Assembly: GCF_037975245.1 (NCBI RefSeq)
Contig: NC_092574.1
Location: 26,766,713-26,830,712 of the forward strand
Reading direction: 5' to 3'
Source of the DNA: Apostichopus japonicus
Lineage: Eukaryota; Echinodermata; Holothuroidea; Aspidochirotida; Stichopodidae
DNA: 64,000 nt
The stretch's first letter is position 1. Every line of letters begins with the position of its first letter. The notes below the pieces were generated by a model, which had not been told where the DNA came from, did no database searches, and worked only from the letters and a program-made list of their open reading frames with translations. Position numbers and translations under genes: made by a program. Positions 4,334-64,000 of this stretch are shown in pieces.

Positions 4334-5684
4334 CAGAACTGAATCTATTCTGTTCACTGAAATTTCTTAACAGTAATAGAGAATGATAATCTGAATCTAC
4401 TCTGTCCACTGAAATTCATAGCAGTAATTAGAATAATGAACTGAATCTATTCTGTCCACTGAAATTCATAGCAGTAAATAGAATAATAATCTGAATCTAT
4501 TCTGTTCACTGAAATTCATAGCAGTAAATAGAATGATAAACAGAATCTATTCTGTCCACTGAAATTCATAGCAGTAAATAGAATGATGAACTGAATCTAT
4601 TCTGTCCATGATATTCTTAGCAGTGAATAGAATGATTAACTGAATCTATTCTGTCCATGAAATTCTCAACAGTTAAATAGGATGATGAACTCAATCTATT
4701 GTTCACTTAAATTCTTAATGTGAACAGAATGATGAACTGAATCTATTATGTCCACTGGAATTCTTAACAGTAAATAGAATGATGAATTGAATCTATTCTG
4801 TTCACTGGAATTCTTAACAGTGAACAGAATGATGAACTGAATCTATTATGTCCACTGGAATTCTTAACAGTAAATAGAATGATGAATTGAATCTATTATG
4901 TCCACTGGAATTCTTAACAGTAAATAGAATGATGAATTGAATCTATTCTGTTCACTGGAATTCTTAACAGTGAACAGAATGATGAACTGAATCTATTATG
5001 TCCACTGGAATTCTTAACAGTAAATAGAATGATGAATTGAATCTATTCTGTTCACTGGAATTCTTAACAGTAAATAGAATGATGAACTGAATCTATTATG
5101 TCCACTGGAATTCTTAACAGTAAATAGAATGATGAACTGAATCTATTCTGTTCACTGGAATTCTTAACAGTAAATAGAATGATGAACTGAATCTATTCTG
5201 TTCACTGAAATTCTTAACAGTAAATAGAATGATTAACTGAATCTATTATGTCCACTGGAATTCTTAACAGTAAATAGAATGATGAACTGAATCTATTCTG
5301 TTCACTGGAATTCTTAACAGTAAATAGAATGATGAACTGAATCTATTCTGTTCACTGAAATTCTTAACAGTAAATAGAATGATGAACTGAATCTATTATG
5401 TCCACTGGAATTCTTAACAGTAAATAGAATGATGAACTGAATCTATTCTGTTCACTGGAATTCTTAACAGTAAATAGAATGATGAACTGAATCTATTCTG
5501 TTCACTGAAATTCTTAACAGTTAAATAGGATGATGAACTGAATCTATTCTGTTCACTGGAATTCTTAACAGTAAATAGAATGATGAACTGAATCTATTAT
5601 GTCCACTGGAATTCTTAACAGTAAATAGAATGATGAATTGAATGTATTCTGTTCACTGAAATTATTAACAGTAAATAGAATGAT
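4334..5684. repeat. Minisatellite, 50-bp unit, about 27 copies
   Basis: Tandem units of 50 bp share the words CTGAATCTATTCTGTTCACTG and TTCTTAACAGTAAATAGAAT. Units at the left end (4334-4700) are the most diverged. The middle and right units are nearly identical and fall into TTCACTGGAA/TCCACTGGAA and GATGAACTGA/GATGAATTGA variants. 50 is not a multiple of three and no long frame crosses the array. It lies about 2 kb beyond the stop codon of the CKAP2-type gene. Confidence 0.9.
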
Positions 5685-7719
5685 GTTCATTTCAGCATGG
5701 AAGGTTCATGCTTCACAATAGTACAAACAGTTAGAACTTGAAGGTGACGACAGATTTACATCAATGTAAGTTGTGAAGTTTCCAGCAGCCTGAAAACTTC
5801 ATATTAAGCCCAATTATTGATAACTTCCTTAAAGATTTATTTCTCCTTAATACACCGGATAGCGAGTCTATATACAAGTGCACTTATAACATATTAACGT
5901 TTCTATCTTAAATCTTATGACTGAAATTTTGCTAGAATTACAGTTGAAGCTATCAAACATAAATAGTAACAATGTTATATTACATGCACAATGAAACATG
6001 TTAAAATTTTGATGCAGTCCTTCAAGTTCATGACTAATTCTAGCTAAGATTGTCAAATTTGCAAATTAAAATGAATAAATTAAATGTAATTACATCTTAA
6101 AATCTCAAAGGCTTTTTAAAAAGTTTCCACAATGCATTTGTGCACACTTAAAAGGAATTGAGAATAAAGAGGCAAAGTGTGACATTCTGACAGCATTCTT
6201 ACAGTGCTGCCTATTTCAAATGCTGTAGTACAGAACTGAAGTAGGAACAAACATTTTACTACTCTCTGTTCCTCTCCCCTCCTCTATCCCACAAGTACGG
6301 CCCTTGCCCTCTTTGCTTCCTCCCTGGTGACCCACCTCCATCCACCACTAAACCCCTGCCGACTGTAGGTCCCTCCAGCTAGACAACACTGCTGATCATG
6401 TGACTGGCATGGAGAACAAGCAGGACATTAAATTTTATCATACCAAGCTCTTTACTAGGACTCAACTTATGAAAAGTACATCCATGGTCAAATATCTTGA
6501 CACAGAAAAACAAATTTAATAAGCTTCTTTTATTTGGTTTTCTCCCATTAAACCTGGTAGAGTACTAGGAATATGTACTCATGTTTTGAATGAAACACTT
6601 TAAGTTTACTAAGTCAAGGGAAACTTTCCGCCATCAATTTATTAATTGTGGATTTTCTAGGACAAAAATTGGTTGTGAATGTTTTGAGCAGTCTGCATCT
6701 CATAAGTTGCTGTCTTAAACAATGCAAGGTCATTGGTCTCATGTCGATACAGACAACTCACAACATTAGAAGATTGGTAAAGGATTAACTTTGGGATACC
6801 AAACTTGAAATTTGTTACCAACCCATGTACAAAATCAATTGGAGTAATATGAAATGAAATATAAAGCATTTTAGTAATTAATATTTGAGGTCTATCGCAT
6901 CCCACCTCAGACAGCCTTGGCTTTTGGCTTGATTGCCACAGGTGGCTGCCTTCTCATACATTTAAGTTTTTATTTAAAACTAAACAAGGCCCCCCCCCCA
7001 CCAACCCCCAAACATGCTTAATACAGCCTTTCTCTCACAGCAAGAATTATTTACCTGTTGATCAACTTACAGTATTTAATGTTTAATCATGTGGCACAGT
7101 ATTTACATTTCATAGAGACGTTCACATATTATGATTTTATACAAATGATTTCAATAATTATTATACAGTTAAAAGCCAAGTAAACTCCATCAATTTACTC
7201 AACCCTTCTGTATCTCACTACAATTTTTGATCAAACAAATCTGTAATTTTCTTTCAAGAAACCAACATTTTGCACCCCTAGTACACATATAATTTCACCC
7301 ACCTGTTTTCCCTTCAGCTAATGGTACAATTCTCTACACGTATGCTTCGAATCATTAGTCCACACACACAATGGTAATCACTTCAAGGCATTCATATTCA
7401 GATTAGTCTAGGCCTTGGTACAGCTGTAATGTAAACTGAATGTAAGTGTGGTAGGCAAAATGTAAAGTCTTGATATTCTGTATGAAAGAGTACCAAATTT
7501 ATACTAGATCTGCTTGTGACACTAAACTAACAACAATATTTTTGCTTCTGTGTTTGCAGGAAAGGGGACATTACGCTGCAAACACAGGCAGCTACAGTAT
7601 ATGGGCTGTGCATAGTTTCTAATTGAAGATTCTTCTGGAATGGTTTGAAGCACAAAATCATTTCATTATGATTAAAAATAATATTGCAAGCTCCCAATAA
7701 TGGATCAATCAATCGCGTT
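5685..7719. other. 3' flank / possible 3' UTR of the CKAP2-type gene
   Basis: AT-rich sequence downstream (minus strand) of the CKAP2 stop. No further coding exon is recognisable. A C run occurs near 6990. The transcript end cannot be placed from sequence alone. Confidence 0.4.
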
Positions 7720-10700
7720 TCAGATTGACATCTCTTCATCATTAAGATCAAACTCTTCCTCTAAAGCTCTGTTTGATCTCAGAACAAGCTGCACCGGTTC
7801 TTCCAGAGGCAAATCTTCAATTTCTCTCAAATTGCTGACGCACATGTCAACCTCACCTCGCTGACGTGATGCGAAGCTGACCGATTTTCGTTTGGAGAGG
7901 CGGATAGATCTTCTTACTGGAGTGATAATCATCGTCGAGGGAGTAGTGTCTGATGTACGTCCCAGTGCCTGCTGGATCCTAATAGGGAGAGAAAATATCA
8001 ACAACATTTTCAGCTATAAACAGACCTTCAAAATTTGTCAAATATTGTGTATGTTTTCAATTTTCCAGATTTCCAAGACCTTATCAATTTTTTTCCCCAC
8101 TTGGCAGCGATAAATTTATCAATTCTTTGAATGCTTTCACAAAGTTAATGTTTCCAAACAGTGACATTCTTGTTGATCTTCAATGTCCTAATCCTCTGAT
8201 CAAGTGAAATTTTATTGACATCACACATGACAGAACAAAACAGATATTTAGTTACTTTGGACCTTTGGCTTTTGCCTGTTTACTTCCTTAGAAAAACATA
8301 TTAAATTTACCTAAATACCTAGTATCTTCCAAAATATAAAAGAAGAAAAAGAAGTTTTATGTATCATAACATAAGCTGCACATAACTTTTTATTATCAGA
8401 ATATGTTTGCTCTCATTTAGGCCTGTGCATTAGCTGATCTGTGTCTAAATTCAGGTCAATGCCAGTAAGAACTTGACTTTAACCAGGAGATTTTATGAGC
8501 ACTGTTTTTTTATAGCGAGTGGCTAAAATTGAAATATCTAAAATTGGTTGGTTCTGGATCAAACTACTCTAGGGAAGTTGGCCAGCATTTGTCCACAAAT
8601 TGGCTAACTTCCTTTATCTTGAACAGTTAGCTACTGATGCTTCACCCTGGTAGTCAATATCTATTCTATGATAGAGTTATAATTAATGTTTTATTTTAAA
8701 ACCCTTATGTTTGTACATATCTAGCAAATCCATAATTTAGTGAATGACAAAACTGCCAGATCTTTTCGCATCTAGTTAACAGTGAAGTGTCTCAGGAGAT
8801 GTTTACCTCATAAACACAATAATAGTGCAATATCAAATAATTTTAGTAAACTTTAAACAAAACTGGGAACTATATTTCAATGCAATTTAGAGAACTCAAT
8901 GTTAAGAGGTCAAGGTATGGTGTAGATGATAGCCTCATAACAGATTCTCTTGACCTTAGTATGCAATAATGTTGCTATGCAGTGTTTCTCTTGACCTAAG
9001 TATGCAATATTGCTGCTATGCAGTGATTCTCTTGACCTAAGTATCAATAATGTTGTTATGCATTGTTTCTCTTGACCTAAGTATGCAATATTGCTGCTAT
9101 GCATTGTTTCTCTTGACCTAAGTATGCAATATTGCTGCTATGCAGTGATTCTCTTGACCTAAGTATCAATAATGTTGTTATGCAGTGTTTCTCTTGACCT
9201 AAGTATGCAATATTGCTGCTATGCAGTGATTCTCTTGACCTAAGTATCAATAATGTTGTTATGCATTGTTTCTCTTGACCTAAGTATCAATAATGTTGCT
9301 ATGCATTTCTCTTGACCTAAGTATCCAATATTGCTGCTATGCATTGTTTCTCTTGACCTAAGTATGCAATATTGCTGCTATGCAGTGATTCTCTTGACCT
9401 AAGTATGCAATATTGCTGCTATGCATTGTTTCTCTTGACCGAAGTATCAATACTGTTGTTATGCAGTGTTTCTCTTGACCTAAGTATGCAATATTGCTGC
9501 TATGCATTGTTTCTCTTGACCTAAGTATCAATAATGTTGTTATGCATTGTTTCTCTTGACCTAAGTATGCAATATTGCTGCTATGCATTGTTTCTCTTGA
9601 CCTAAGTATGCAATATTGCTGCTATGCAGTGTTTCTCTTGACCTAAGTATCAATAATGTTGTTATGCATTGTTTCTCTTGACCTAAGTATGCAATATTGC
9701 TGCTATGCATTGTTTCTCTTGACCTAAGTATGCAATATTGCTGCTATGCAGTGATTCTCTTGACCTAAGTATCAATAATGTTGTTATGCAGTGTTTCTCT
9801 TGACCTAAGTATTCAATAATGTTGCTATGCAGTGATTCTCTTGACCTAAGTATCAATAATGTTGTTATGCAGTGTTTCTCTTGACCTAAGTATGCAATAT
9901 TGCTGCTATGCAGTGTTTCTCTTGACCTAAGTATTCAATAATCCTGTGGTTGATAACACAACTTGGCCGTTTGCCGGTGTGTACCTTTTAAAGTATGGTG
10001 TAGCATCCCTGACTTGGTACTTCACTGCTGACGATTCTTCATGTTCTCCCAAAGGACTGAGCAATTGAAAGCAGGATCTTCTTGATTTACGTGGAGTGGG
10101 TGTAGCTGGAGGTCCAGGAATAGTTTCTATGGAAACCTCTTTTGTCTCTTCCATAAGAGCCTGATGAAACCCAAAAAATGCATGAAAAAGTATCTTAAAT
10201 AATAAAATAAAGTATGCCTTTGGAAAAGAGTTACTGAACTGAAAAAGAAAAAAAAAAACGGTAAATTTCAACATACAAAAACAGTTTTTGTGTACGTCAA
10301 AACTGTATTTAGAGTACTAAGCAATATGCTAGTATTTTACTTAAGTTACAAATAAGCACTTTATGCTATCAAATTGATGAATGTTTCTTGCATATATAAG
10401 CAGAATCATTTACTAATATTTTCTATATAAAATTTGCTTCTATCCTCTAAACTGCAATCTGAATGTATTTTTTATTTTTTACTTAATCTTTACCCCTTGA
10501 TATTAAATATGTTGAATCACCTCTGGAATTATTTCATCAATGCTTTGTCCATTGAAGGCTTCTTGTACTGTTTTCCTACATTCCAGAAAGGATTCCATAT
10601 CACTCAAGTAGGGTAGTTTAGTCTCTATATTTGTTAGCCAATCAAATAGATATTCTGCTGGACAACCCTGTAAAATAAAAAAACAAAACAATGTTGATGT

Positions 10701-13700
10701 TCAGGAAATATCACAGTTGTATGTACAGTAATACATAGATCATATGCAGGCCTGCAAACCTAAAAACATACATACACACTGTACTGTCCAACATCACGAA
10801 AATGAAAGGCATATAATCAGGGCGTCCGTAGGTTGAATAGGTGTTTACATCAAATTCAGTTTGCTTGGTAACTCAATACCCCAAAATTGGTAATTGATAA
10901 ATTGGTATCACCCCCAAAGTTGATGTTCTATTCACCAAACCTACACATCTCTCCTACAGTGTACAGTACATATTGATGTTCTATTCACCAAACCTACACA
11001 TCTCTCCTACAGTGCACATATTGGTGTTCTATTCACCAAACCTACACATCTCTCCTACAGTGTACATATTGGTGTTCTATTCACCAAACCGACACATCTC
11101 TCCTACAGTGTACAAATTGGTGTTCTATTCACCAAACCTACACATCTCTCCTACAGTGTACATATTGGTGTTCTATTCACCAAACCTACACATCTCTCCT
11201 ACAGTGTTCATATTGGTGTTCTACTCACCAAACCTACACATCTCTCCTACATTGGTAATATTGGTGTTCTATTCACCAAACCTACACATCTCTCCTACAG
11301 TGTACAAATTGGTGTTCTATTCACAAAACCTACACATCTCTCCTACAGTGTACATATTGGTGTTCTATTCACCAAACCTACACATCTCTCCTACAGTGTA
11401 CATATTGGTGTTCTATTCATCAAACCTACACATCTCTCCTACAGTGTACATATTAGTGTTCTATTCACCAAACCTACACATCTCTCCTATAGTGTTCATA
11501 TTGGTTTTCTATTCATCAAACCTACACATCTCTCCTACAGTGTACATATTGATGTTCTATTCATCAAAACCTACACATCTCTCCTACAGTGTACATGTTG
11601 GTGTTCTATTCACCAAACCTACACATCTCTCCTACAGTGTACATATTGGTGTTCTATTCACCAAACCTACACATCTCTCCTATAGTGTTCATATTGGTTT
11701 TCTATTCATCAAACCTACACATCTCTCCTACATTGGTAATATTGGTGTTCTATTCACCAAACCTGCACATCTCTCCTACAGTGTACATATTGGTGTTCTA
11801 TTCACCAAACCTACACATCTCTCCTATAGTGTACATATTGGTGTTCTATTCACTAAACCTACACATCTCTCCTACAGTGTACATATTGGTGTTCTATTCA
11901 CTAATCCTACACATCTCTCCTGCAATGTATATATTGGTGTTCTATTCACCAAACCTACACATCTCTCCTACAGTGTTCATATTGGTGTTCTATTCATCAA
12001 ACCTACACATCTCTCCTACAGTATACATATTGGTGTTCTATTCACTAAACCTACACATCTCTCCTACAGTGTACATATTGGTGTTCTATTCACCAAACCT
12101 ACACATCTCTCCTACAGTGTACATATTGGTGTTCTATTCACCAAACATACACATCTCTCCTACAGTGTACATATTGGTGTTCTGTTCATCAAACCTACAC
12201 ATCTCTCCTACAGTGTACATATAGGTGTTCTATTCATTAAACCTACACATCTCTCCTACAGTGTACATATTGGTGTTCTATTCACCAAACCTACACATCT
12301 CTCCTATAGTGTTCATATTGGTTTTCTATTCATCAAACCTACACATGTCTCCTACATTGGTAATATTGGTGTTCTATTCACTAAACCTGCACATCTCTCC
12401 TACAGTGTACATATTGGTGTTCTATTCACCAAACCTACACATCTCTCCTATAGTGTACATATTGGTGTTCTATTCACTAAACCTACACATCTCTCCTACA
12501 GTGTACATATTGGTGTTCTATTCACTAATCCTACACATCTCTCCTGCAATGTATATATTGGTGTTCTATTCACCAAACCTACACATCTCTCCTACAGTGT
12601 TCATATTGGTGTTCTATTCATCAAACCTACACATCTCTCCTACAGTATACATATTGGTGTTCTATTCACTAAACCTACACATCTCTCCTACAGTGTACAT
12701 ATTGGTGTTCTATTCACCAAACCTACACATCTCTCCTACAGTGTACATATTGGTGTTCTATTCACCAAACATACACATCTCTCCTACAGTGTACATATTG
12801 GTGTTCTGTTCATCAAACCTACACATCTCTCCTACAGTGTACATATAGGTGTTCTATTCATTAAACCTACACATCTCTCCTACAGTGTACATATTGGTGT
12901 TCTATTCACCAAACCTACACATCTCTCCTATAGTGTACATATTGGTGTTCTATTCACCAAACCTACACTTCTCTCCTACAGTGTACATATTGGTGTTCTA
13001 TTCACCAAACCTACACATCTCTCCTACAGTGTACATGTTGGTGTTCTATTCACCAAACATACACATCTCTCCTACAGTGTACTGTACATATTGGTGTTCT
13101 ATTCACCAAACCTACACATCTCTCCTACAGTGTACATATAGGTGTTCTATTCATTAAACCTACACATCTCTCCTACAGTGTACATATTGGTGTTCTATTC
13201 ACCAAACCTACACATCTCTCCTACAGTGTACATGTTGGTGTTCTATTCACCAAACATACACATCTCTCCTACAGTGTACTGTACATATTGGTGTTCTATT
13301 CACCAAACCTACACATCTCTCCTACAGTGTACATATCGGTTTAAATATTGGTTATATGTGTGTTTTATTGTAATCGATTGTATGTACAGAGTCATGAATT
13401 ACTTGGTTTTATTATTGGTAATATGTGGGTTTTCTTGTTTAAGGTTGTATGTTCAGAGTCATGAATTAATTGGTTTTATAATTGGTAATATGTTGCTTAT
13501 ATTGTTTAAGGCTGTATGTACAGAGTCGTGAAGTACTTGGTTTTATTATTGGTAATATGTGGGTTTCATTGTATTCGGTTGTATGTACAGAGTCGTGAAT
13601 TACTTGGTTTTATTATTGGTAATATACGGATTTTATTGTTTAAGGTTGTGTGTAATGAGTCACGATTTCTTTTGATTTCCTCTTCCAACTGATCATTGGA

Positions 13701-34319: not shown

Positions 34320-36310
34320 GTTATAATGGGCGACTTTGATTTTCCTGACATTAATTGGATAGATGGTTCAAGTAGTAGGACGGGTAATAACTTTCTAGAT
34401 GTTGTGCAAGATTGCTTTTTACATCAGCATGTTACTTTCCCTACTGGGGGGGGGGGGGGATAACATCCTGGATCTTGTTTTGAGTTCTGATCCAAGCAAT
34501 GTTTTTGATTTGACGGGTCTAGGAAAACTAGGAACTAACGATCATGATATACTAGCTTTTGATGTTGTTTGCAAGGTCGTACATTCTGTTAGCAAGGAAA
34601 AATTCTCCGATTTTTCGAGATCAGATACATAGGCAATTGAAACTTTACTAAAGGGTACATATTTGATTAATTTGTTTAGAGATATAAGTGCTTCTCAGTC
34701 TTGGATTTGTTGAGCTGATAAGTTACATGTCATTATGGAAAATCATGTTCCGTGGCAGAATTGTCGTCGTAAAAGCAGTATGTCTTCCTGGATGAATAAG
34801 AAAGGTAGATGTGCAATTAGGCAAAAATGTAGAATGTGGAAGTTGTTTAGGAGGACTAAATCTGAATCTCTTTTGGCCAAGTTTAAAATTCATCAGCTGA
34901 AGGTAGAATGCTTAGTCTCTGTTGCAAAGGTGAATTTCGAAAATAACATTGCCTAAATATTAAGGATAACCCACAGGCCTTCTTTTCTTATATGTCAGAT
35001 CAAAGCAGAAAGTTAAAGATGCAATTGTTTTTCTGAGGGCACTACAGGCTGATAATATAGTTACTGATAGTCAGGATCTTGCAGATCTTTTGAACAACTA
35101 TTTTGTTTCGGTTTTTACAAGGAAAGATACGAGTAGTTTTCCAGATTTTCAGGGAGGAATTGATGGTCCTAAACTGGATACGGTCTTATAGTTTCGGATG
35201 AGGTTTAAAAGGTCTTAAAGGAGCTGCTTTGTCTAAATGTTTCTAAAGCTTCTCGACCTAATGCAATCCATCCGTATTTGTTGAAGACTTTTGCACACCG
35301 TTTCTGCGTTCCACTCTCATTGGGTTTTAGTAAATTTATGAATGATTGGAGATGTTCTAATATTACCCCAGTTTTCAAGAAGGGTGATATAAGTCTAAGC
35401 CCTGTAATTACAGGCCTGTTAATCTCACTAGTCTTGTTTGTAACGTATGGAGTATACTGTTAAACAGTCTATCGTCAATCACTTCAGCAGTCTGTCTTTG
35501 ATCAGAGAGTCTCAACATGGCTTTTGTCAAAAAAGGTCATGTCTCACTAACATCCTTGAGTTTATGGAAGATGTAACAAGCTCACTAAATAGGCAGAAGT
35601 CTGTAGATGTTGTGTTCCTGGATTTCCAGAAGGCCTTTGATAAAGTTCCCTACCAGCATCTTTTACTTAGGCTAAAGAGTGTGGGTTTCAATAGGAATTA
35701 CTCTCTTGGATCGAGAATTGGCCAGCTTGGTAATAGGAAACAGAAGGTGGTTATTAAAGGCTGTGCTTCTTCTTGGCAGGACGTTACTAGTGGGTTTCCA
35801 CAAGGGTCTGTTTTGGGTCCCTTGTTGTTTGTTGCCTATATAAATGACATTGACGGAAATATTTTGTGTATAGCTAAGACGTTTGCTAATAACACCAAAT
35901 TGTATTCTGAGGTCCCTTCCAAAAGCAATTCTGAGAAATTTCAAACGGATTTGGATAAGGTTTTTCCTGGTCTCAGGGATCGATGGCTAATGCTTTATAG
36001 TATTGGTAAATGCAAAGTGAGCATTTAAATAGTAGTAACCTTAAGTATACCTACCATCTTAATGGTGTAGAGTTACAGGAGGTCTTTGTTGAAAGAGACC
36101 TGGGTATCTACATTGACTGACTTATCTCTGCAACCTTCTAAACATTGTCTTGAAGCTGCTCGGGCTAAAAGAGGTGAAAGGGTTTTAGGTATGATAAGAG
36201 GAACTTCAGTTTTCTGAAAGAGGATATAGTAGGTAGGCTTTATAAGCAGTTGGTTAGGCCTCATTTGGAGTATGCTGTGCAGGTTTGGAACCCATATTTG
36301 ATTTCCCCGT
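34320..36310 (+). pseudogene. LINE ORF2: AP-endonuclease and reverse transcriptase remnants
   Basis: Endonuclease: GDFDFPDINWIDG near 34328, DNILDLVLSSDP near 34460 and NDHDILAF near 34537. Reverse transcriptase: ITPVFKKGD near 35360, then the 35447-36028 frame with QHGFCQKRSCLTNILEF, DVVFLDFQKAFDKVP and GFPQGSVLGPLLF. The catalytic F/YADD block reads FANN, so both acidic residues are lost. The motif set is typical of CR1/L2-type enzymes. The ORF is interrupted many times. Confidence 0.85.
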
Positions 36311-52747: not shown

Positions 52748-54023
52748 TCTCCCTTTTTTCAGTTAAAATAAATTTAAGGATGTGGATGAGAAACAATTTA
52801 CTTATCCAGAAATATACTTGAATGATAATGACCTAACACTGCATAAATATAAACTCAATCTCTAGCAAAGATTCGACTACTGGTTCTAGGTTACCAAATA
52901 ACTACCGCTTCACTACCAAATTAAATTCCTTTGGTCACATTTCTTAGTCACTGTGCCAACGTGGTTTTGTCTTTGCTCTAATACTTCTTCGAAAATCAGT
53001 GTTCGTGGTTTGGTTCTCTGAAGAGGTTTGTTCATTGTCAGAATTAACTATGTCATTGTCGTCATGTCTGTCATAACTAAATGTTTCAGCAGTTTTAAGT
53101 AAATGTTTGCGGTTGCGTCTATACTGCACACCTTCAGCTGTCTCTACATAGTATGATCTGGGCTGATCAGCCTTAGATACAATAGTGGCTGGTTTCCAAC
53201 CTTTGTCAGTCTGTAGGCGAATATTATCTTCTGGTTGCAATTCTGGTAATTTCTTTGTCTGTCGGTCGTAATATGTTTTTTGTGTTTGTCTCTTCTCTAC
53301 CAGTCTTTTGTGTACTGTCTCTGGCTTCAGTATTTTCGGCTTGAGTAAATGTTCAGTCACTGGAAGTAGGGTATTTGTCCTTCGTCCAAACAGTCGTTGT
53401 ACAGGTGATCCGAGAATATTATCTCTTGGTGTATTCCTGTAGTCCAATAAAGCTAGGTATGGATCTTGTCCACTCTTCTTTGCCTTCATTAGCAAAGCCT
53501 TTGCAATCTGCACCCCTTTCTCTACCATGCCGTTAGACTGAGGATGGTATAGACCAGACTTAATATGATGAAATTTATAAAGATTCGAAAAACTGTCAAA
53601 TTGCCAACTTTTGAATTGGGGTCCATTATCTGTGATTAGAACATCTGGAATACCATGGCGTGCAAATTGTGATTTACAATGTACTTTAACAGTTTCACTC
53701 TTGTTACTAGGTAAATGTGAAATTTCAAAGTACCCAGAGAAATAATCAATTAAAATCAAATAGTTATTTCTATTCCACTCAAAGAGATCAGCACCCAGCT
53801 TCTGCCAAGGTCTTTGAGGAATCTCATGAGATGTTAGAGGTTCCTTTTGATTCTGCCTTCTGTGTGTGTTACAGATGGAACACTTTGGAGTTAAATCTTC
53901 AATTTCAGCACTCATTTGAGGCCAAAACATAATGTCCCTTGCTCTTCGTTTACATTTTTCAACACCAAGGTGAGCATTGTGGACTTGACTTAAAATACTG
54001 TAGAATGAGTACAATATGTTACA
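52494..54023 (-). mobile_element. Internally deleted LTR retrotransposon with integrase only
   Basis: Flanked by the 5-bp target duplication AAATC (52489-52493 and 54024-54028). Copy A has the empty site. On the minus strand, 53994-54023 is just the first 30 bp of the 5' LTR, joined directly to integrase. A polypurine-like AAAAAAGGGAGA precedes the full 3' LTR (52494-52747, TGTAACATATTG...ATTACA). Gag, protease, reverse transcriptase and RNase H are absent. Confidence 0.92.
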
Positions 54024-54038
54024 AAATCCATATACCAT
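52944..54038 (-). CDS. LTR retrotransposon integrase (Ty3/mdg4-like), open frame of 364 codons
   Basis: Uninterrupted frame. The first residues read through host DNA and 30 bp of LTR. Then come a zinc-binding HHCC domain (H20, H23, C53, C56, with GVEKCKRRARDIMFWP), the catalytic core with D84 (GADLF), D137 (TDNGPQF) and E173 (NGMVEKG) giving exact D,D-35-E spacing, and a C-terminal tail with DNIRLQ...GWKPATIV typical of Ty3-like integrases. The catalytic residues are all present, so integration activity cannot be excluded. With no upstream polyprotein or promoter it is probably inactive, or at most captured by chance. Confidence 0.9.
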   Translation of the reverse strand: MVYGFCNILYSFYSILSQVHNAHLGVEKCKRRARDIMFWPQMSAEIEDLTPKCSICNTHRRQNQKEPLTSHEIPQRPWQKLGADLFEWNRNNYLILIDYFSGYFEISHLPSNKSETVKVHCKSQFARHGIPDVLITDNGPQFKSWQFDSFSNLYKFHHIKSGLYHPQSNGMVEKGVQIAKALLMKAKKSGQDPYLALLDYRNTPRDNILGSPVQRLFGRRTNTLLPVTEHLLKPKILKPETVHKRLVEKRQTQKTYYDRQTKKLPELQPEDNIRLQTDKGWKPATIVSKADQPRSYYVETAEGVQYRRNRKHLLKTAETFSYDRHDDNDIVNSDNEQTSSENQTTNTDFRRSIRAKTKPRWHSD

Positions 54039-54339
54039 GTAGCCTATATATGAAAAGTATAAGATCTACCACGAGAAATCATGTTTTAAAGGTTTTCAGG
54101 CCTGACAATTGTTTTAAATGTACTCGTTATTTTGCGACCGTGACTAAAAGTTTACTAGCCAAAACGCAAAATTCACTCGCCATTATGACTGCCTTTCAAA
54201 TCTCCATAGTACAGAGCTGCAACATCAATACTTTTTATGAACAAATTGTGCTACGTAATTGCACATTGGAAAATTATGTTTCTGTGAAGTATGAAATTTA
54301 AACTTTGTTCCACCAGAAGTAAGTGATGAACAAAGTAAA

Positions 54340-59043: not shown

Positions 59044-60280
59044 AAACTTATAATAGTCAAAACCCCCATTTTATTTCAGCTCAATAATAATAGGTATCCT
59101 ATTGCGTGCAGTTTGCATGATAAACAAGTGAGGTCACCTTAGGCCTACACTGATTCCAGCTTCACGGTTATAGGCCATGGGCCGTGGCTCTGAAATCCTT
59201 CCAGAAAATGATTCTTGTTACGTCCGGAGTGGTATTACATGAAATATAGTCTGAGTTATAGATAATATGTCCATAATAAAGAATCAATTTGTTCTTTTGC
59301 TCAAAAGTGGCACATTAATATGTAATTCACAGATAAAATGTCAAATTTTTCAACATAAAGAAAAACATAAGAAAAACAGCGCCCTCACTTGATCAAAAAT
59401 ACTTAGTCTGTCTCCAGATAGAAGCAGTTTACCCCCCAAAAATTCACATTTTGATGTGGAAACCTTTATAATTGTAAAGATTATGTATGGCACAACAGTT
59501 CTTAAAGTTTGTATAGGCATATGGCTATTGGAATAATATTTTTCAACTGTACTTGGTGTTTTTTGTGGTGGGGATAGGCCAGTTTGTTCATTGTTAAATT
59601 GTTGAAATACACTATTTCTAGGCAATAAACGATCCAGTAATAAGAAATGAGAGCAAGGGGTAGGCCAGCATGTATACATTATAACATGATTGAGGAGGGG
59701 GTCATTATTGGTGAATAAATAAGCACACTATTTCGTATTAATTATAATCAAACTGGAGATTTCTTAACAAACAAAGTATGTCTAAACAGTATTTCTTGTG
59801 CACAGAATATCACTAGGCAAAACTAATAATTGACTTGTCTTACTCTTGTTTGGGTAGAAAAATGAACAAAAATCACAAAATTACCAATCACATCTCAGTT
59901 TAATAAGTACACGTGGATGCTGGAATGTACTTGGTTTTATCCAAACGTGTGCATTTTTTGATCTTCACATTATACCAAGTGACTGAATACATACAAACAT
60001 GAAGATGTTACATGTACGCACGCAGTGATGTGGCTTTAAATTCCGCCTAAGATAGCTAACAAATTTAATGTTACAAATGTTTTAATATAACTTTGTGCAA
60101 TAACAAGAGTTGTGCAATAACAATTCAATGGCATAAGTAAATCTCACTACCCAAATAACATTTGGAATGTTTCTTTTCATTTTGGTTCTTGTGAACAGGA
60201 ATTAGACTTTGTGTTACATTTTGAGTCATACACCGCACTCACTTGATCAAAAAGTTATCTAGTACATATCATTTGTTTTC
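59044..60280. other. Region beyond duplication B and 3' of the CXC-domain gene
   Basis: AT-rich, no supported gene. The words CACTTGATCAAAAA occur in the same orientation at about 59387 and 60240. They might mark element ends or internal repeats of the adjacent gene's element. Confidence 0.35.
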
Positions 60281-63200
60281 TCATCCTTCATCTTCATCTT
60301 CGTCATCCTCGTTGTTTTCATCATCTTCATTTGCCTGCTTTTCATTGTGACAATCTGTGCACTTGCAAAGTTCAGAGCAAGGCAATTTGTTCTTTAGACA
60401 GGAACATGCTGATGTCTCACATTTAGACTTTCTACAGCTACAATGTGTCAGCTCAAGGACTTCATCTGGTGCTGGGGAAAGATCCATCCAGTCAATGATG
60501 AGATGATCACCATCCATTTGCCATCCATGGCCGACTGGGTGTGTCTGGATTAGAAATCAAACTCCTCTTCCAAACTGCCGCCTGATAGTTTGATCTCAAG
60601 ATGTGTTTCTTTAAAGAGTCTTGATTTGGTGGCATTGCTGACTCTGACTTGTTCTCATGCATTTTAAAATGCCTGTACCGGGCCTCATTTACGGATGATG
60701 TGCCGTTCTGGTTGTACACTGAACATGTAAACTTCTCCAGAGATAGAGCTACATTTGGTGACAGAGTGAATGATTCTCCTAAGTCTGCAAATGAACTGTA
60801 TGCTGCCTGTTCCTCCATTTTCTTCCACATGTTTACCTTTCCCTTCCTGTGAATACATGTAAACCTATAAGTGCGCTTGTTTTCTCAGTTCCAAGTGATT
60901 CACGGATAGCTGTCAAGTTGACTATCCTCTTTACCTTCTGGCCAGTATGGAATAAGACATTTCCATCTGATGTTATTTCCTTGCATAGTGTCACACCAAT
61001 GACAAAAACTTCAGTGTCAGGGCTTTTTATGATAACATTAGCTGTGTCGGTTGAGGCAAACTTACTGTGAAGCAACAAGCGAGTATCAGCTTCCTCATGG
61101 TTGCAGTAGAGCTGTACAATTGGCTGGACCAGTATTTGACCACTGCGCACAGAAAATGAGTGGCATTCCTCTCCATGAGCTAAGTAGATGGTCACCTCTC
61201 CTAAGATTGATGCTGATGATGCCTGGCCCCATGCGGTGAACAGAAATTTCACCAAATCCTCCTTATTTGGACCATGGCTCAAGAATTTCTTCCATTGTCG
61301 TGGAACTTTCATCTGTCTTCCATATATTTTGAGAGTTTGCACCCCGCTAGTCCCAGCTCGCCTTTCACGTTCTGCATTTTTGATACTTACGACTGGGTAC
61401 TGATCTGTGACAAAGTGGATGTGCTTATGACTAGTTGCATCTGCTAGCTTCACCAGCTGAGAAAGAATGTCGTCAGCCAATTCGCCAAAGGTTGCTGGTA
61501 ATGTGCTGACCTTAAGTTGTTGCAACATGGCCATGGCATCCACAATCCAGGTGCAGTCTTGAGGAATACTACACAAATATGGATCTTGTGTACATGATTC
61601 CAAGTGATGCATGAGTTTAGCCTTTGGGTGTTTGACTAAAGTTCCATCGTGTGTTGACAATGACAGAGGTAATGGCCCCAGACAGTATTGCAACATAGAC
61701 TCAAGGCTAATATTTCTTGAAGTACCACAGAGTAGCAATCTTGCAAAGAGGTTTCGGTTAGATTTTAATTCAATCACTTTTCCTTTCACTTTTGTTGTCC
61801 GTTTTCTTCTCATTGATGCAAATGTTTTCAAGTTGAGTCGTTTGATTGGTGCAAAGAACCCTGTTTCCTCTCCTTGTAGCCGGTCAGTGATGAAAGATTG
61901 TACCGCTACTTCTCCTTTTGATTTAGCACTAGCTAGATCATCAGCCACTTCTTTAGAGGCCACAACACCTGATGTTAGATTCACTAGCTGGTTACTCTCT
62001 TGGTCAAAGGGGTCAACCATGGACTCTATTGAAGACATTATAGCCATGATGTCTCTTTCATCCCTTTCATTTCTGGTGGGATCTAAATCCTTTCGCTGTC
62101 GTGAAACTTCACCTTTGCCAGCCATCTCTTCACATTCTCTTGAAATCTCTGCTCGCATGTGATCGGATGAAATCCAGCGATGTACAGCACCTTTGTTGAC
62201 TGTGATGCCCGTAAGTCCTCCTTTGGTTTTGGAATCCCTGTTTGCAGTTTGTTCAATGGTCTGATCACATGGTATACCTGCAAATCCATGGCTCGTCTGT
62301 CTCTGAACACTGAAGTGCCCCCTCTGAAATTCCTCTTCTACGGATGGGTGTTTTGTACTAAGCTCCTTCATCTCTAACCAATAAACTGGTGCATACCTTG
62401 CATAGTTGACTCTATCGTAAGCCATGAACCATGGCATCATCGACCTGATAGATGACAGATGTAAATTCCAGTTACTTTCTCTGGATGCTCGGATGAAGAG
62501 AAGGAGAACTTGTACCATGTCTATGTAGCTGCTCCAAAATGCAAACATAGGATTGGTTGCAGCCTTGGAAACAAATTCTTGGTATGACTGAAGCAGACTT
62601 TGAAGCTTTTCATCAGAAAGACGGTCAGGAAAGTTAGTTGGGAAAGAATCACTTAGGCTCGCAAGTATGTTATGGACTTCAAGTGCCTCGTCTGTTGGTA
62701 ATGTTGCAATGTATCTCTGGAAACGGAGTCGGTGTAGAGCCTCAAACATTAGCTTGTGGATCTCACTGATCGGTTGTAGTGATGTCCATTCAGGACCCCA
62801 TTAATGGACCCTTGTGCAACCACTTCTGATGCAATAGCAACTTCTTCCAGCCCAGCATCCCCAAACCGTTTCCCTAGACAAGCTAAGAAGGTCATTGCAG
62901 TATGAAAGGCCCCTAGTCTAACTATAATACGGCTGCTGTACGGACCACTTTTCCACCTGATTTGCTGTGCTTTGGCGTAGATAGCCTGATCAAAGACTGT
63001 GACAATTGTCTGTAGGTGTAGGGCATTGGCTATTTCTAGCGATCTACATAAAATGGTTTCTATAGTATCCATTTCTGTAGGTGAGGCATCGATGACTGGC
63101 AAATATCCAATTATGGACTTGGCTGGTATGTTGTCAGCTATAAGCGTATTAAACCTTGTCCAACTTGGGGGCCTGTGTTGGTTGGACTCTCTCTGGATAG

Positions 63201-64000
63201 CTCTTGAAAGAACGTATGATGTATCTAATGTCATAGCATTCACCTGCCCATCAGTTGTCTCATGTATGGGGATAGCTGCCCCAAATACACTGGGCCCTTT
63301 TTTGGCTCCTCCATAGTAGGAGGCTAGTTCTGTTGGTGGAGGTTCAAGGGAACGGCTCTTGGTCGCAACTGGCGGGCAGCAGAAGGCATCTTCAGGAGAG
63401 TGGTCTGCTTGTTGGGTTTGGACAACAATGCCGTTGGTGTTATGGGTTGTGCCACTGCCGGAGAGCGTTTCTTCCCCAAAATCATTGTTGTCCCAAATTA
63501 GTGTCGTAAACTCCCTCTGCTTTATGAATGGTGGAAGATTGATAGGGCCCATATCAAGCTGTTTTTGAGCAAGAGCGGTGTCATGTTCTAAAATGACAGA
63601 GTGTGATGAAGCATGGCCAAAACCATTCAGTAGGCCAATTAACTTAGCAGAGCCAGTAAGATGTCGGACAGTCATGGCAAGAGCGGCGTGTTTTGGCATT
63701 GACTTCTTGCCTCCTGATGAATTATAAATGATATCTTGTGCCATGGACAAAATTCTTCTGTCATGCTGTTCAGAAACTGCAACTCGCTCACTTTCGGATG
63801 GTTCTTCTGAAGCTCCAATAAGCCATGCTAGAAAATTGTACAGTTGCACAGGAACAAGGTTACGAGCTATGGCTAATGTCAAATCTTGCCCTGTTTGTGG
63901 CCATGCTGTGTCCACATGTACCTCTTGGACAGCAATTCTAAGCTGTCTAGCTGTAAAGTACATGTCACTCAATGAAATGCCTTTACTTCTACACGAACCT
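60281..64000 (-). pseudogene. HEEADTR / CXC-domain protein of an uncharacterised invertebrate family, frameshifted and partial
   Basis: One long gene broken into four frames. (1) 64000-62750 enters open from the window edge and ends with FDQAIYAKAQQIRW, RLGAFHTAMTFLACLGKRF and NGHHYNRSVRS. (2) 62749-60833 starts at HKLMFEALHRLRF, one base out of frame, and contains CNHEEADTRLLLHSKFAS, NVIIKSPDTEVFVIG and ALIGLHVFTG. (3) about 60845-60545 continues at KGKVNMWKK after a short deletion. (4) about 60545-60284 reads HPVGHGWQ, then PAPDEVLEL and a tesmin/TSO1-like CXC motif CxCx4Cx4CxCx6Cx3CxCx2C, then an acidic tail. From memory, intact relatives have a conserved GCD..S/A..F block after HAFTG, exactly the part missing here. 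The family is abundant in cnidarians, molluscs and echinoderms and may be transposon-linked. The SPDT and CD blocks recall metal-binding nuclease motifs, but that is inference. No intron is evident. Confidence 0.75.

What the first reader, a model, noticed from the sequence alone, without database searches (positions are those of the whole stretch)
60281..64000. HEEADTR-CXC family: probable undescribed mobile or nuclease-like system
The gene combines a long N-terminal region with a D-Q-A-x-Y-x-K-A motif, a core with HEEADTRLLLH and SPDTEVFVI, and a C-terminal tesmin/TSO1-type CXC domain, which in other proteins binds DNA. Acidic motifs in an alternating fold next to a DNA-binding cysteine domain would fit a transposase or nuclease. 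I know the motif set from many invertebrate genomes as unannotated proteins but know no described function.
Basis: partly seen in the sequence, partly recalled or inferred. Interest (0 to 1): 0.75.

Follow-up and report, generated by a model that had tools for sequence, protein, structure and literature searches.

The report
Decayed AcademX-type cut-and-paste DNA transposon
The window ends in a decayed copy of a large jumping gene whose protein joins a likely transposase core, a flap-nuclease (FEN1/EXO1-like) domain and a DNA-binding cysteine domain; nearly identical copies of a related element in the same genome show recent movement, but it most likely belongs to the already named Academ group.

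Summary
The minus-strand frames at 60281-64000 code part of a broken DNA transposon of 7211 bp, running from window 59171 to 2381 bp past the window end, with inverted ends starting TAGGCCATGGGCC and a 3-bp target duplication TTA. The genome holds at least 76 protein matches. Three copies of a related 8.39-kb element are 99.95-99.99% identical on three contigs, each with a 1572-aa open frame. One interrupts a 5S rRNA gene; the unoccupied site matches 40 of 40 scored places exactly. All 13 internally deleted relatives read at both ends have perfect 3-bp duplications. The protein joins a DUF6589 region with conserved D, D and E, a FEN1/EXO1-type nuclease (E 7.6e-6) and a CXC domain. 'Mobile, nuclease-like' is right. 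'Undescribed' is probably wrong: nuclease plus 3-bp duplications fits AcademX (PMC10045372, passages), though no Academ reference sequence was available for comparison.

The parts
59171..64000 (-). Decayed AcademX-type DNA transposon, the part inside the window; it continues 2381 bp beyond the window end (7211 bp in all). Coding strand is minus.
   Evidence: Inverted ends and 3-bp TSD TTA/TTA on window + adjacent locus L008; alignment to the C8 copy L009 in two pieces (94.3% over 6613 bp, 93.6% over 673 bp) reaches the same outer ends to within one base
59171..59187 (+). Terminal inverted repeat on the 3' side of the gene, TAGGCCATGGGCCGTGG; its partner TAGGCCATGGGCCATGA lies beyond the window
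   Evidence: 21 of 23 genome rows, the window itself included, start at exactly this base
59168..59170 (.). Target site duplication TTA (the other TTA follows the far end, outside the window)
62752..63999 (-). Frame 1: DNNDFGEETLSGSGTTH (in 63430-63492), DQAIYAKA (in 62968-62994), LGAFH (62902-62916): likely transposase core
   Evidence: matches L001 residues 301-713, 49%, E 1e-129; conserved residues in relatives; relatives match Pfam DUF6589
60836..62800 (-). Frame 2 (655 aa): rest of the core with CDQTIEQTANRDSK (62228-62269), then FEN1/XPG-like nuclease: WIVDAMAML (61523-61549), FVTDQYPVVSIKNAERERRA (61355-61414), HEEADTRLLLH (61067-61099), SPDTEVFVI (60998-61024); frame lost at FTGRER where relatives have TGCD
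60510..60884 (-). Frame 3: linker between nuclease and CXC
   Evidence: matches L001 residues 1363-1472, E 1.5e-28
60335..60451 (-). Tesmin/TSO1-type CXC domain (in frame 60281-60556), followed by an acidic tail
   Evidence: PF03638 E 1.9e-7, 31.7 bits over cut-off 23.5; frame matches L001 residues 1467-1556

Best explanation
This is a dead copy of a cut-and-paste DNA transposon of the AcademX type. Relatives with an open frame code one protein of about 1550-1570 aa. Its N-terminal part holds a D-D-E transposase core (Pfam DUF6589 region) that would cut the ends and join them to the target. A fused FEN1/EXO1-type nuclease would process the other strand or the flaps and gaps at the ends. The CXC domain would hold DNA. 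Shown here: the element ends, the 3-bp target duplication, near-identical copies of relatives at separate sites, the domain order and the conserved acidic residues. Inferred: the catalytic chemistry, the division of labour between the two active sites, and what the CXC domain binds.
For: Many copies, some with long open frames. Three copies 99.95-99.99% identical over 8.39 kb in different flanks. Inverted ends TAG[A/G/T]C with 3-bp duplications: 3 of 3 group A and 3 of 4 group B copies, the fourth lacking its far end; 13 of 13 internally deleted relatives of the window copy, 12 separate sites. Unoccupied 5S site 100% over 120 bp in 40 of 40 scored places; the interrupted and an intact 5S gene are recognised by Rfam. 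FEN1/EXO1 profile match E 7.6e-6, score 47.5, 230 columns; 200 shuffles at most 24.2; other segment of the same proteins 16.9. All seven XPG-type acidic positions in 9 of 13 rows, six distinct families. DUF6589 E 4.9e-13 in L016. CXC. AcademX makes 3 or 4 bp duplications and encodes a nuclease (PMC10045372, passages).
Against: No Academ reference sequence was at hand, so the name rests on architecture and duplication length. That the AcademX nuclease is of XPG type is recalled, not read. Pfam XPG_I does not reach these proteins. hhalign against human EXO1 alone is weaker: score 34.0, E 4.9e-4, 50 columns at the C-terminal end, shuffles at most 26.1. No structure: single-sequence model pLDDT 35.5. 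DUF6589 passes its cut-off only in L016 among the proteins with listed scores. No credible ends for L007, L010, L015, L016 and L019 (5 of 18 loci).
Confidence: 0.85

Rival explanations
1. A DNA transposon of a separate, unnamed superfamily that acquired a FEN1-like nuclease independently of Academ.
For: Apart from DUF6589 and TCR no Pfam family passes its cut-off in the proteins whose scores are listed; no direct comparison with an Academ sequence was possible (key paper not held).
Against: 3-bp duplication plus nuclease is what is described for AcademX; Academ is reported as amplified in bivalves (PMC10294476, passages), though the host here is unnamed.
Confidence: 0.1
2. The FEN1-like nuclease alone is the recombinase and the DUF6589 region is only structural or DNA-binding.
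For: The nuclease is related to known enzymes, whereas the D/D/E set is a reading of conserved residues with no match to a named transposase family.
Against: The two D and the E are conserved in all rows that cover them (E with a one-column shift in four rows). FEN-type enzymes hydrolyse DNA and are not known to join ends, whereas short fixed duplications are typical of DDE strand transfer (general knowledge; a general description of the latter is in PMC10045372).
Confidence: 0.1
3. A host gene family (domesticated or housekeeping), not a mobile element.
For: Long open frames and conserved acidic residues.
Against: Flanking duplications, inverted ends, unoccupied site and near-identical copies on different contigs.
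Confidence: 0.01

Closest known systems
AcademX lineage of the Academ superfamily (eukaryotic DNA transposons)
   Same: 3-bp target duplications, inverted ends, large protein with a nuclease, no helicase match
   Different: Not compared by sequence. The CXC domain and the DUF6589 assignment do not appear in the passages I read; they may be in Kojima 2020, which was not held.
AcademH
   Same: Superfamily, if the AcademX filing is right
   Different: AcademH makes 9 or 10 bp duplications and encodes a helicase (PMC10045372); here 3 bp and no helicase match
FEN1/EXO1/XPG nucleases
   Same: Seven acidic positions, the K/R-rich stretch after the second D, and the GCD motif; L016 reads SGCDYVSFF, human EXO1 SGCDYLSSL
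   Different: Distant: Pfam XPG_I does not match; fused to a likely transposase
Pfam DUF6589
   Same: L016 residues 639-1001, E 4.9e-13, 49 bits over cut-off 27
   Different: Only weak matches (E 0.0074 to 0.1) in L001, L004, L010 and L018, which are closer to the window copy; Pfam gives it no function
LIN54/tesmin CXC domain
   Same: Cysteine pattern; Pfam TCR over cut-off in the window protein and in L019
   Different: One CXC repeat instead of two; the TTYRAA site of LIN54 (recalled) is not consistently enriched at the element ends, 1 of 6 elements stood out

Membership tests
AcademX (Academ superfamily) | target site duplications of 3 or 4 bp | tested here: met
   3 bp: window copy TTA; 13 of 13 internally deleted relatives; 3 of 3 and 3 of 4 in groups A and B
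AcademX (Academ superfamily) | encodes a nuclease (XPG type, recalled) | tested here: met
   hhalign to a FEN1/EXO1 profile E 7.6e-6, score 47.5; shuffles at most 24.2
AcademX (Academ superfamily) | no helicase (a helicase marks AcademH) | tested here: met
   no helicase among the 12 Pfam families matched by any of 13 members at E up to 1
AcademX (Academ superfamily) | DDD/E transposase core | tested here: inconclusive
   conserved D, D, H, E and DUF6589, but no match to a named DDE family and no structure
AcademX (Academ superfamily) | sequence similarity to Repbase Academ transposases | not testable with these tools
   no Academ reference sequence found; Kojima 2020 not held
AcademH | 9-10 bp duplications and a helicase | tested here: not met
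EnSpm/CACTA and Harbinger | their own transposase domains; CACT ends or a fixed T-rich target (recalled) | tested here: not met
   no such domain among the 12 Pfam families matched by 13 members; ends start TAG; targets vary
FEN1/XPG nuclease family | seven conserved acidic metal-binding positions | tested here: met
   all seven in 9 of 13 rows (L001, L004, L010, L011-L014, L018, L019). Not in: L015 and L016 (first D is E; L015 also loses the last), L017 (first E is D, last not aligned), window (one D is E, last lost)
FEN1/XPG nuclease family | match to Pfam XPG_I over cut-off | tested here: not met
   XPG_I not among the families matched by 13 members; none of the 6 genome-wide rows lies at these elements

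The most novel reading that the evidence does not exclude
DUF6589, a family with no named function, is the transposase core of these elements, and the fused FEN1-like active site cuts the second strand or trims the flap at the ends, which would set the 3-bp duplication. A DDE enzyme and a repair-type flap nuclease would then act as one two-site transposition machine, with CXC as its DNA clamp.
Probability: 0.35. Interest if true: 0.6.

Novelty: new member of a known kind. Interest (0 to 1): 0.35.

Why it matters
Almost identical copies with open frames and exactly mapped ends make this a good natural system to ask why a DDE-type transposase would carry its own FEN1-type nuclease. It also suggests a role for DUF6589, and warns against annotating such frames as host genes.

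Tried and rejected
Single-copy host gene: rejected. Viral home: one scan of viral contigs with a single peptide pattern gave 28 pattern hits, none confirmed. Structure of the nuclease piece of the window: mean pLDDT 35.5, not used. CXC recognising LIN54-like TTYRAA sites at the ends: 1 of 6 elements stood out, so not supported. NCBIfam on three proteins: one sub-threshold match only (SLATT_1, 17.7 bits, cut-off 41), disregarded. Rfam and tRNA scans of the window: nothing.

Literature: Academ with XPG and transposon, 0 papers; DUF6589, 0 papers; five Academ/XPG phrases, at least two required, 0 papers; tesmin/CXC with transposase/transposon terms gave a listing of 18 papers, none with a title on such an element, none opened. 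The first Academ search matched 'academic' and was of no use. Passages only were seen of PMC10045372, PMC10799480, PMC10294476, PMC9587614, PMC5753468 and PMC9783078. Kojima 2020 was not seen.

Limits of the end test: the scan demanded inverted ends and equal 3- or 4-bp flanks, so its hits are selected for duplication. For L011-L014 and L017 the rows I accept (ends TAG...) were not the top-ranked; the other rows are internal repeats or chance. The ends of L011-L014 and of L009/window were checked by alignment of copies, within 3 bases; those of L017 and L018 were not. One search located each far end by its motif before the flanks were compared. Of 19 fetched copies far ends were fetched for 13; L079 and L081 share flanks and count as one site. 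One search, a first attempt on all 19, found 0 of 19 far ends because the pieces were too short. Five of 13 rows (L012, L013, L014, L015, L017) were dropped from the profiles, and 23 of the 53 FEN1 loci were used. The shuffles were run on match columns only (real score then 46.5).

Full report
What is in the window. They tile the single open frame of a relative, L001, in order: residues 301-713, 715-1353, 1363-1472 and 1467-1556 at 46-49% identity. The last frame has a tesmin/TSO1 CXC domain over Pfam's cut-off (31.7 bits, cut-off 23.5). The gene is broken, so the window copy cannot make the whole protein.

It is a repeat, and relatives look young. The 655-aa frame has 76 matches in the 671.6-Mb genome (234 candidates, 68 scored, so a lower bound). 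Three copies on contigs C8, C18 and C19 (group A: L001-L003) share 8.39 kb at 99.95-99.99% identity and then stop sharing flanks. Each has one open frame of 1572 aa from stop to stop. A second group (B: L004-L007) shares about 9 kb, with a 1551-aa frame open in two of four copies.

Element ends and target duplications. Group A ends read TAGACTATGGGGC and, from the other side, TAGACGGTGGGGC, flanked by GGA/GGA, ACA/ACA and GTA/GTA. Group B ends read TAGTCAGTGGGCC on both sides, flanked by TAG, ATG and ATT in 3 of 4 copies; similarity to the fourth (L007) stops before the far end. A scan of 18 loci gave ends with 3-bp duplications also for L009, L011, L012, L013, L014, L017 and L018, and none that I believe for L007, L010, L015, L016 and L019. 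For the window copy the ends are TAGGCCATGGGCCGTGG at 59171 and TAGGCCATGGGCCATGA at position 66381, counted on into the adjoining locus L008, with TTA on both sides. The C8 relative L009 aligns in two pieces (94.3% over 6613 bp and 93.6% over 673 bp) and reaches the same outer ends to within one base.

Independent test of the ends. The first 300 bases of the window element have 23 matching rows in the genome; 21, the window itself included, start at exactly base 1. I fetched the 19 other than the window and L009, and the far ends of 13 of these. All 13 have a 16 of 16 match to the end motif and an identical 3-bp flank on both sides. Two share flanks, so there are 12 separate sites. The duplications differ (AAC, TGG, TGA, TAA, GAC, TTA, ATA, ATC, CAG, CTA, CAA, CAA), so no fixed target sequence is seen. 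The group A end gives 13 rows, all starting at base 1.

Unoccupied site. The L001 element starts at base 1495 of that locus, inside a 5S rRNA gene that Rfam places at 1395-1516 (79.8 bits); an intact 5S gene lies at 560-678. The two flanks joined with a single GGA match 40 of 40 scored places at 100% over 120 bases (494 candidates); 35 of the 39 spacings between them are 830-840 bases. This shows precise insertion with a 3-bp duplication. That it is recent rests on the near-identity of the copies, not on the flanks, since 5S arrays homogenise.

Domain order. In the 13-row alignment (L011-L014 are near copies of one another) the order is N-terminal cysteine motifs, a region with DN(I/N/V)D, then DQAxY and LGxxH, then D...E...K, then the nuclease, then CXC. 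The D at 471 of L001 is present in 11 of 11 rows that cover it, the D at 637 in 12 of 12, the H at 666 in 12 of 12, D879 and K891 in 13 of 13. The E at 883 is in column in 9 of 13 and one column off in the other four, the L011-type rows. Pfam DUF6589 matches 6 of 13 members at E up to 1, best in L016 (E 4.9e-13, residues 639-1001). That stretch spans the second D, the H and the E; the first D, at 553, lies before it. I read this as a DDE transposase core; that is inference.

Nuclease. A segment of 309 residues of L001 that spans D1123 to D1355, with 7 relatives (8 sequences, 5 of 13 rows dropped), was compared as a profile with 23 archaeal FEN1 plus human EXO1. The result was probability 84%, E 7.6e-6, score 47.5 over 230 columns. 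Two hundred column shuffles gave at most 24.2, and the transposase segment of the same proteins gave 16.9. With archaeal FEN1 alone the score is 38.0, P 2.3e-4, over 94 columns; with human EXO1 alone 34.0 over 50 columns, shuffles at most 26.1. In the best alignment WIVDG, FVTD..SIK..ER.RR, SPDTD and TGCDS fall in register with EXO1 VAVDT, LVFD..PSKKEVERSRR, TEDSD and SGCDY. The E-A-D of HEEADTR lies beside EXO1 YEADA with a gap; its exact register is by eye. All seven acidic positions are kept in 9 of 13 rows, six distinct families. Pfam XPG_I does not reach these proteins, so the relation is distant. The window copy has SPDTE for SPDTD and loses the last acidic position.

How it most likely works. 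Shown: an element with inverted ends that inserts with a 3-bp duplication. Inferred: DDE cutting and joining, FEN1-type processing of the second strand or flap, CXC as DNA grip. No LIN54-like site is consistently enriched at the ends. The window family also spread as internally deleted derivatives. In 17 of the 19 fetched copies the matches listed show the left 0.45-0.62 kb of the element and then the right part from about position 4732-4980, with about 0.8-1.3 kb of other sequence between. The region that codes the CXC domain, the nuclease and most of the core is missing from them.

What it is called. PMC10045372 (passages) states that AcademX makes 3 or 4 bp and AcademH 9 or 10 bp duplications, and ties this to nuclease and helicase. 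PMC10294476 (passages) reports Academ as amplified in bivalves, with a mean curated length of 5565 bp, shorter than the elements here. PMC9587614 (passages) lists Academ among superfamilies with a DDD/E transposase and describes Kolobok lineages with added nucleases or helicases. The main Academ paper (Kojima 2020) was not held. I therefore file it as AcademX with high but not full confidence.

Noticed in passing
window 10920-13340: Large tandem array, 48-bp unit, about 50 copies, open in more than one frame (746-aa frame at 10901-13141); repeat-coded, probably not a gene.
   Followed up: no
window 4336-5685 and 8945-9940: Two more tandem arrays, 50-bp unit x27 and 41-bp unit x25.
   Followed up: no
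window 35444-36028: Reverse transcriptase fragment, Pfam RVT_1 E 1.6e-14, probably a LINE remnant.
   Followed up: partly
window 52944-54065: Integrase with H2C2 zinc finger (E 6e-10) and rve core (E 3.6e-8), probably a Gypsy-type retrotransposon remnant; described only.
   Followed up: partly
L079-L082, L084-L094, L096, L097, between the retained left and right parts: These internally deleted relatives carry about 0.8-1.3 kb of sequence with no listed match to the window element between the retained parts; its origin is unknown.
   Followed up: no
G000 C8 38242537-38277577 and L001 560-1516: 5S rDNA repeats; the group A element L001 interrupts a 5S gene about 104 kb beyond the 40 listed repeats, next to an intact 5S gene.
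   Followed up: partly
L015 and L016: A divergent, longer family (1737-aa frame in L016; the two loci 98.4% identical over 9.2 kb) with the best DUF6589 match; no ends were found in the fetched stretches.
   Followed up: partly
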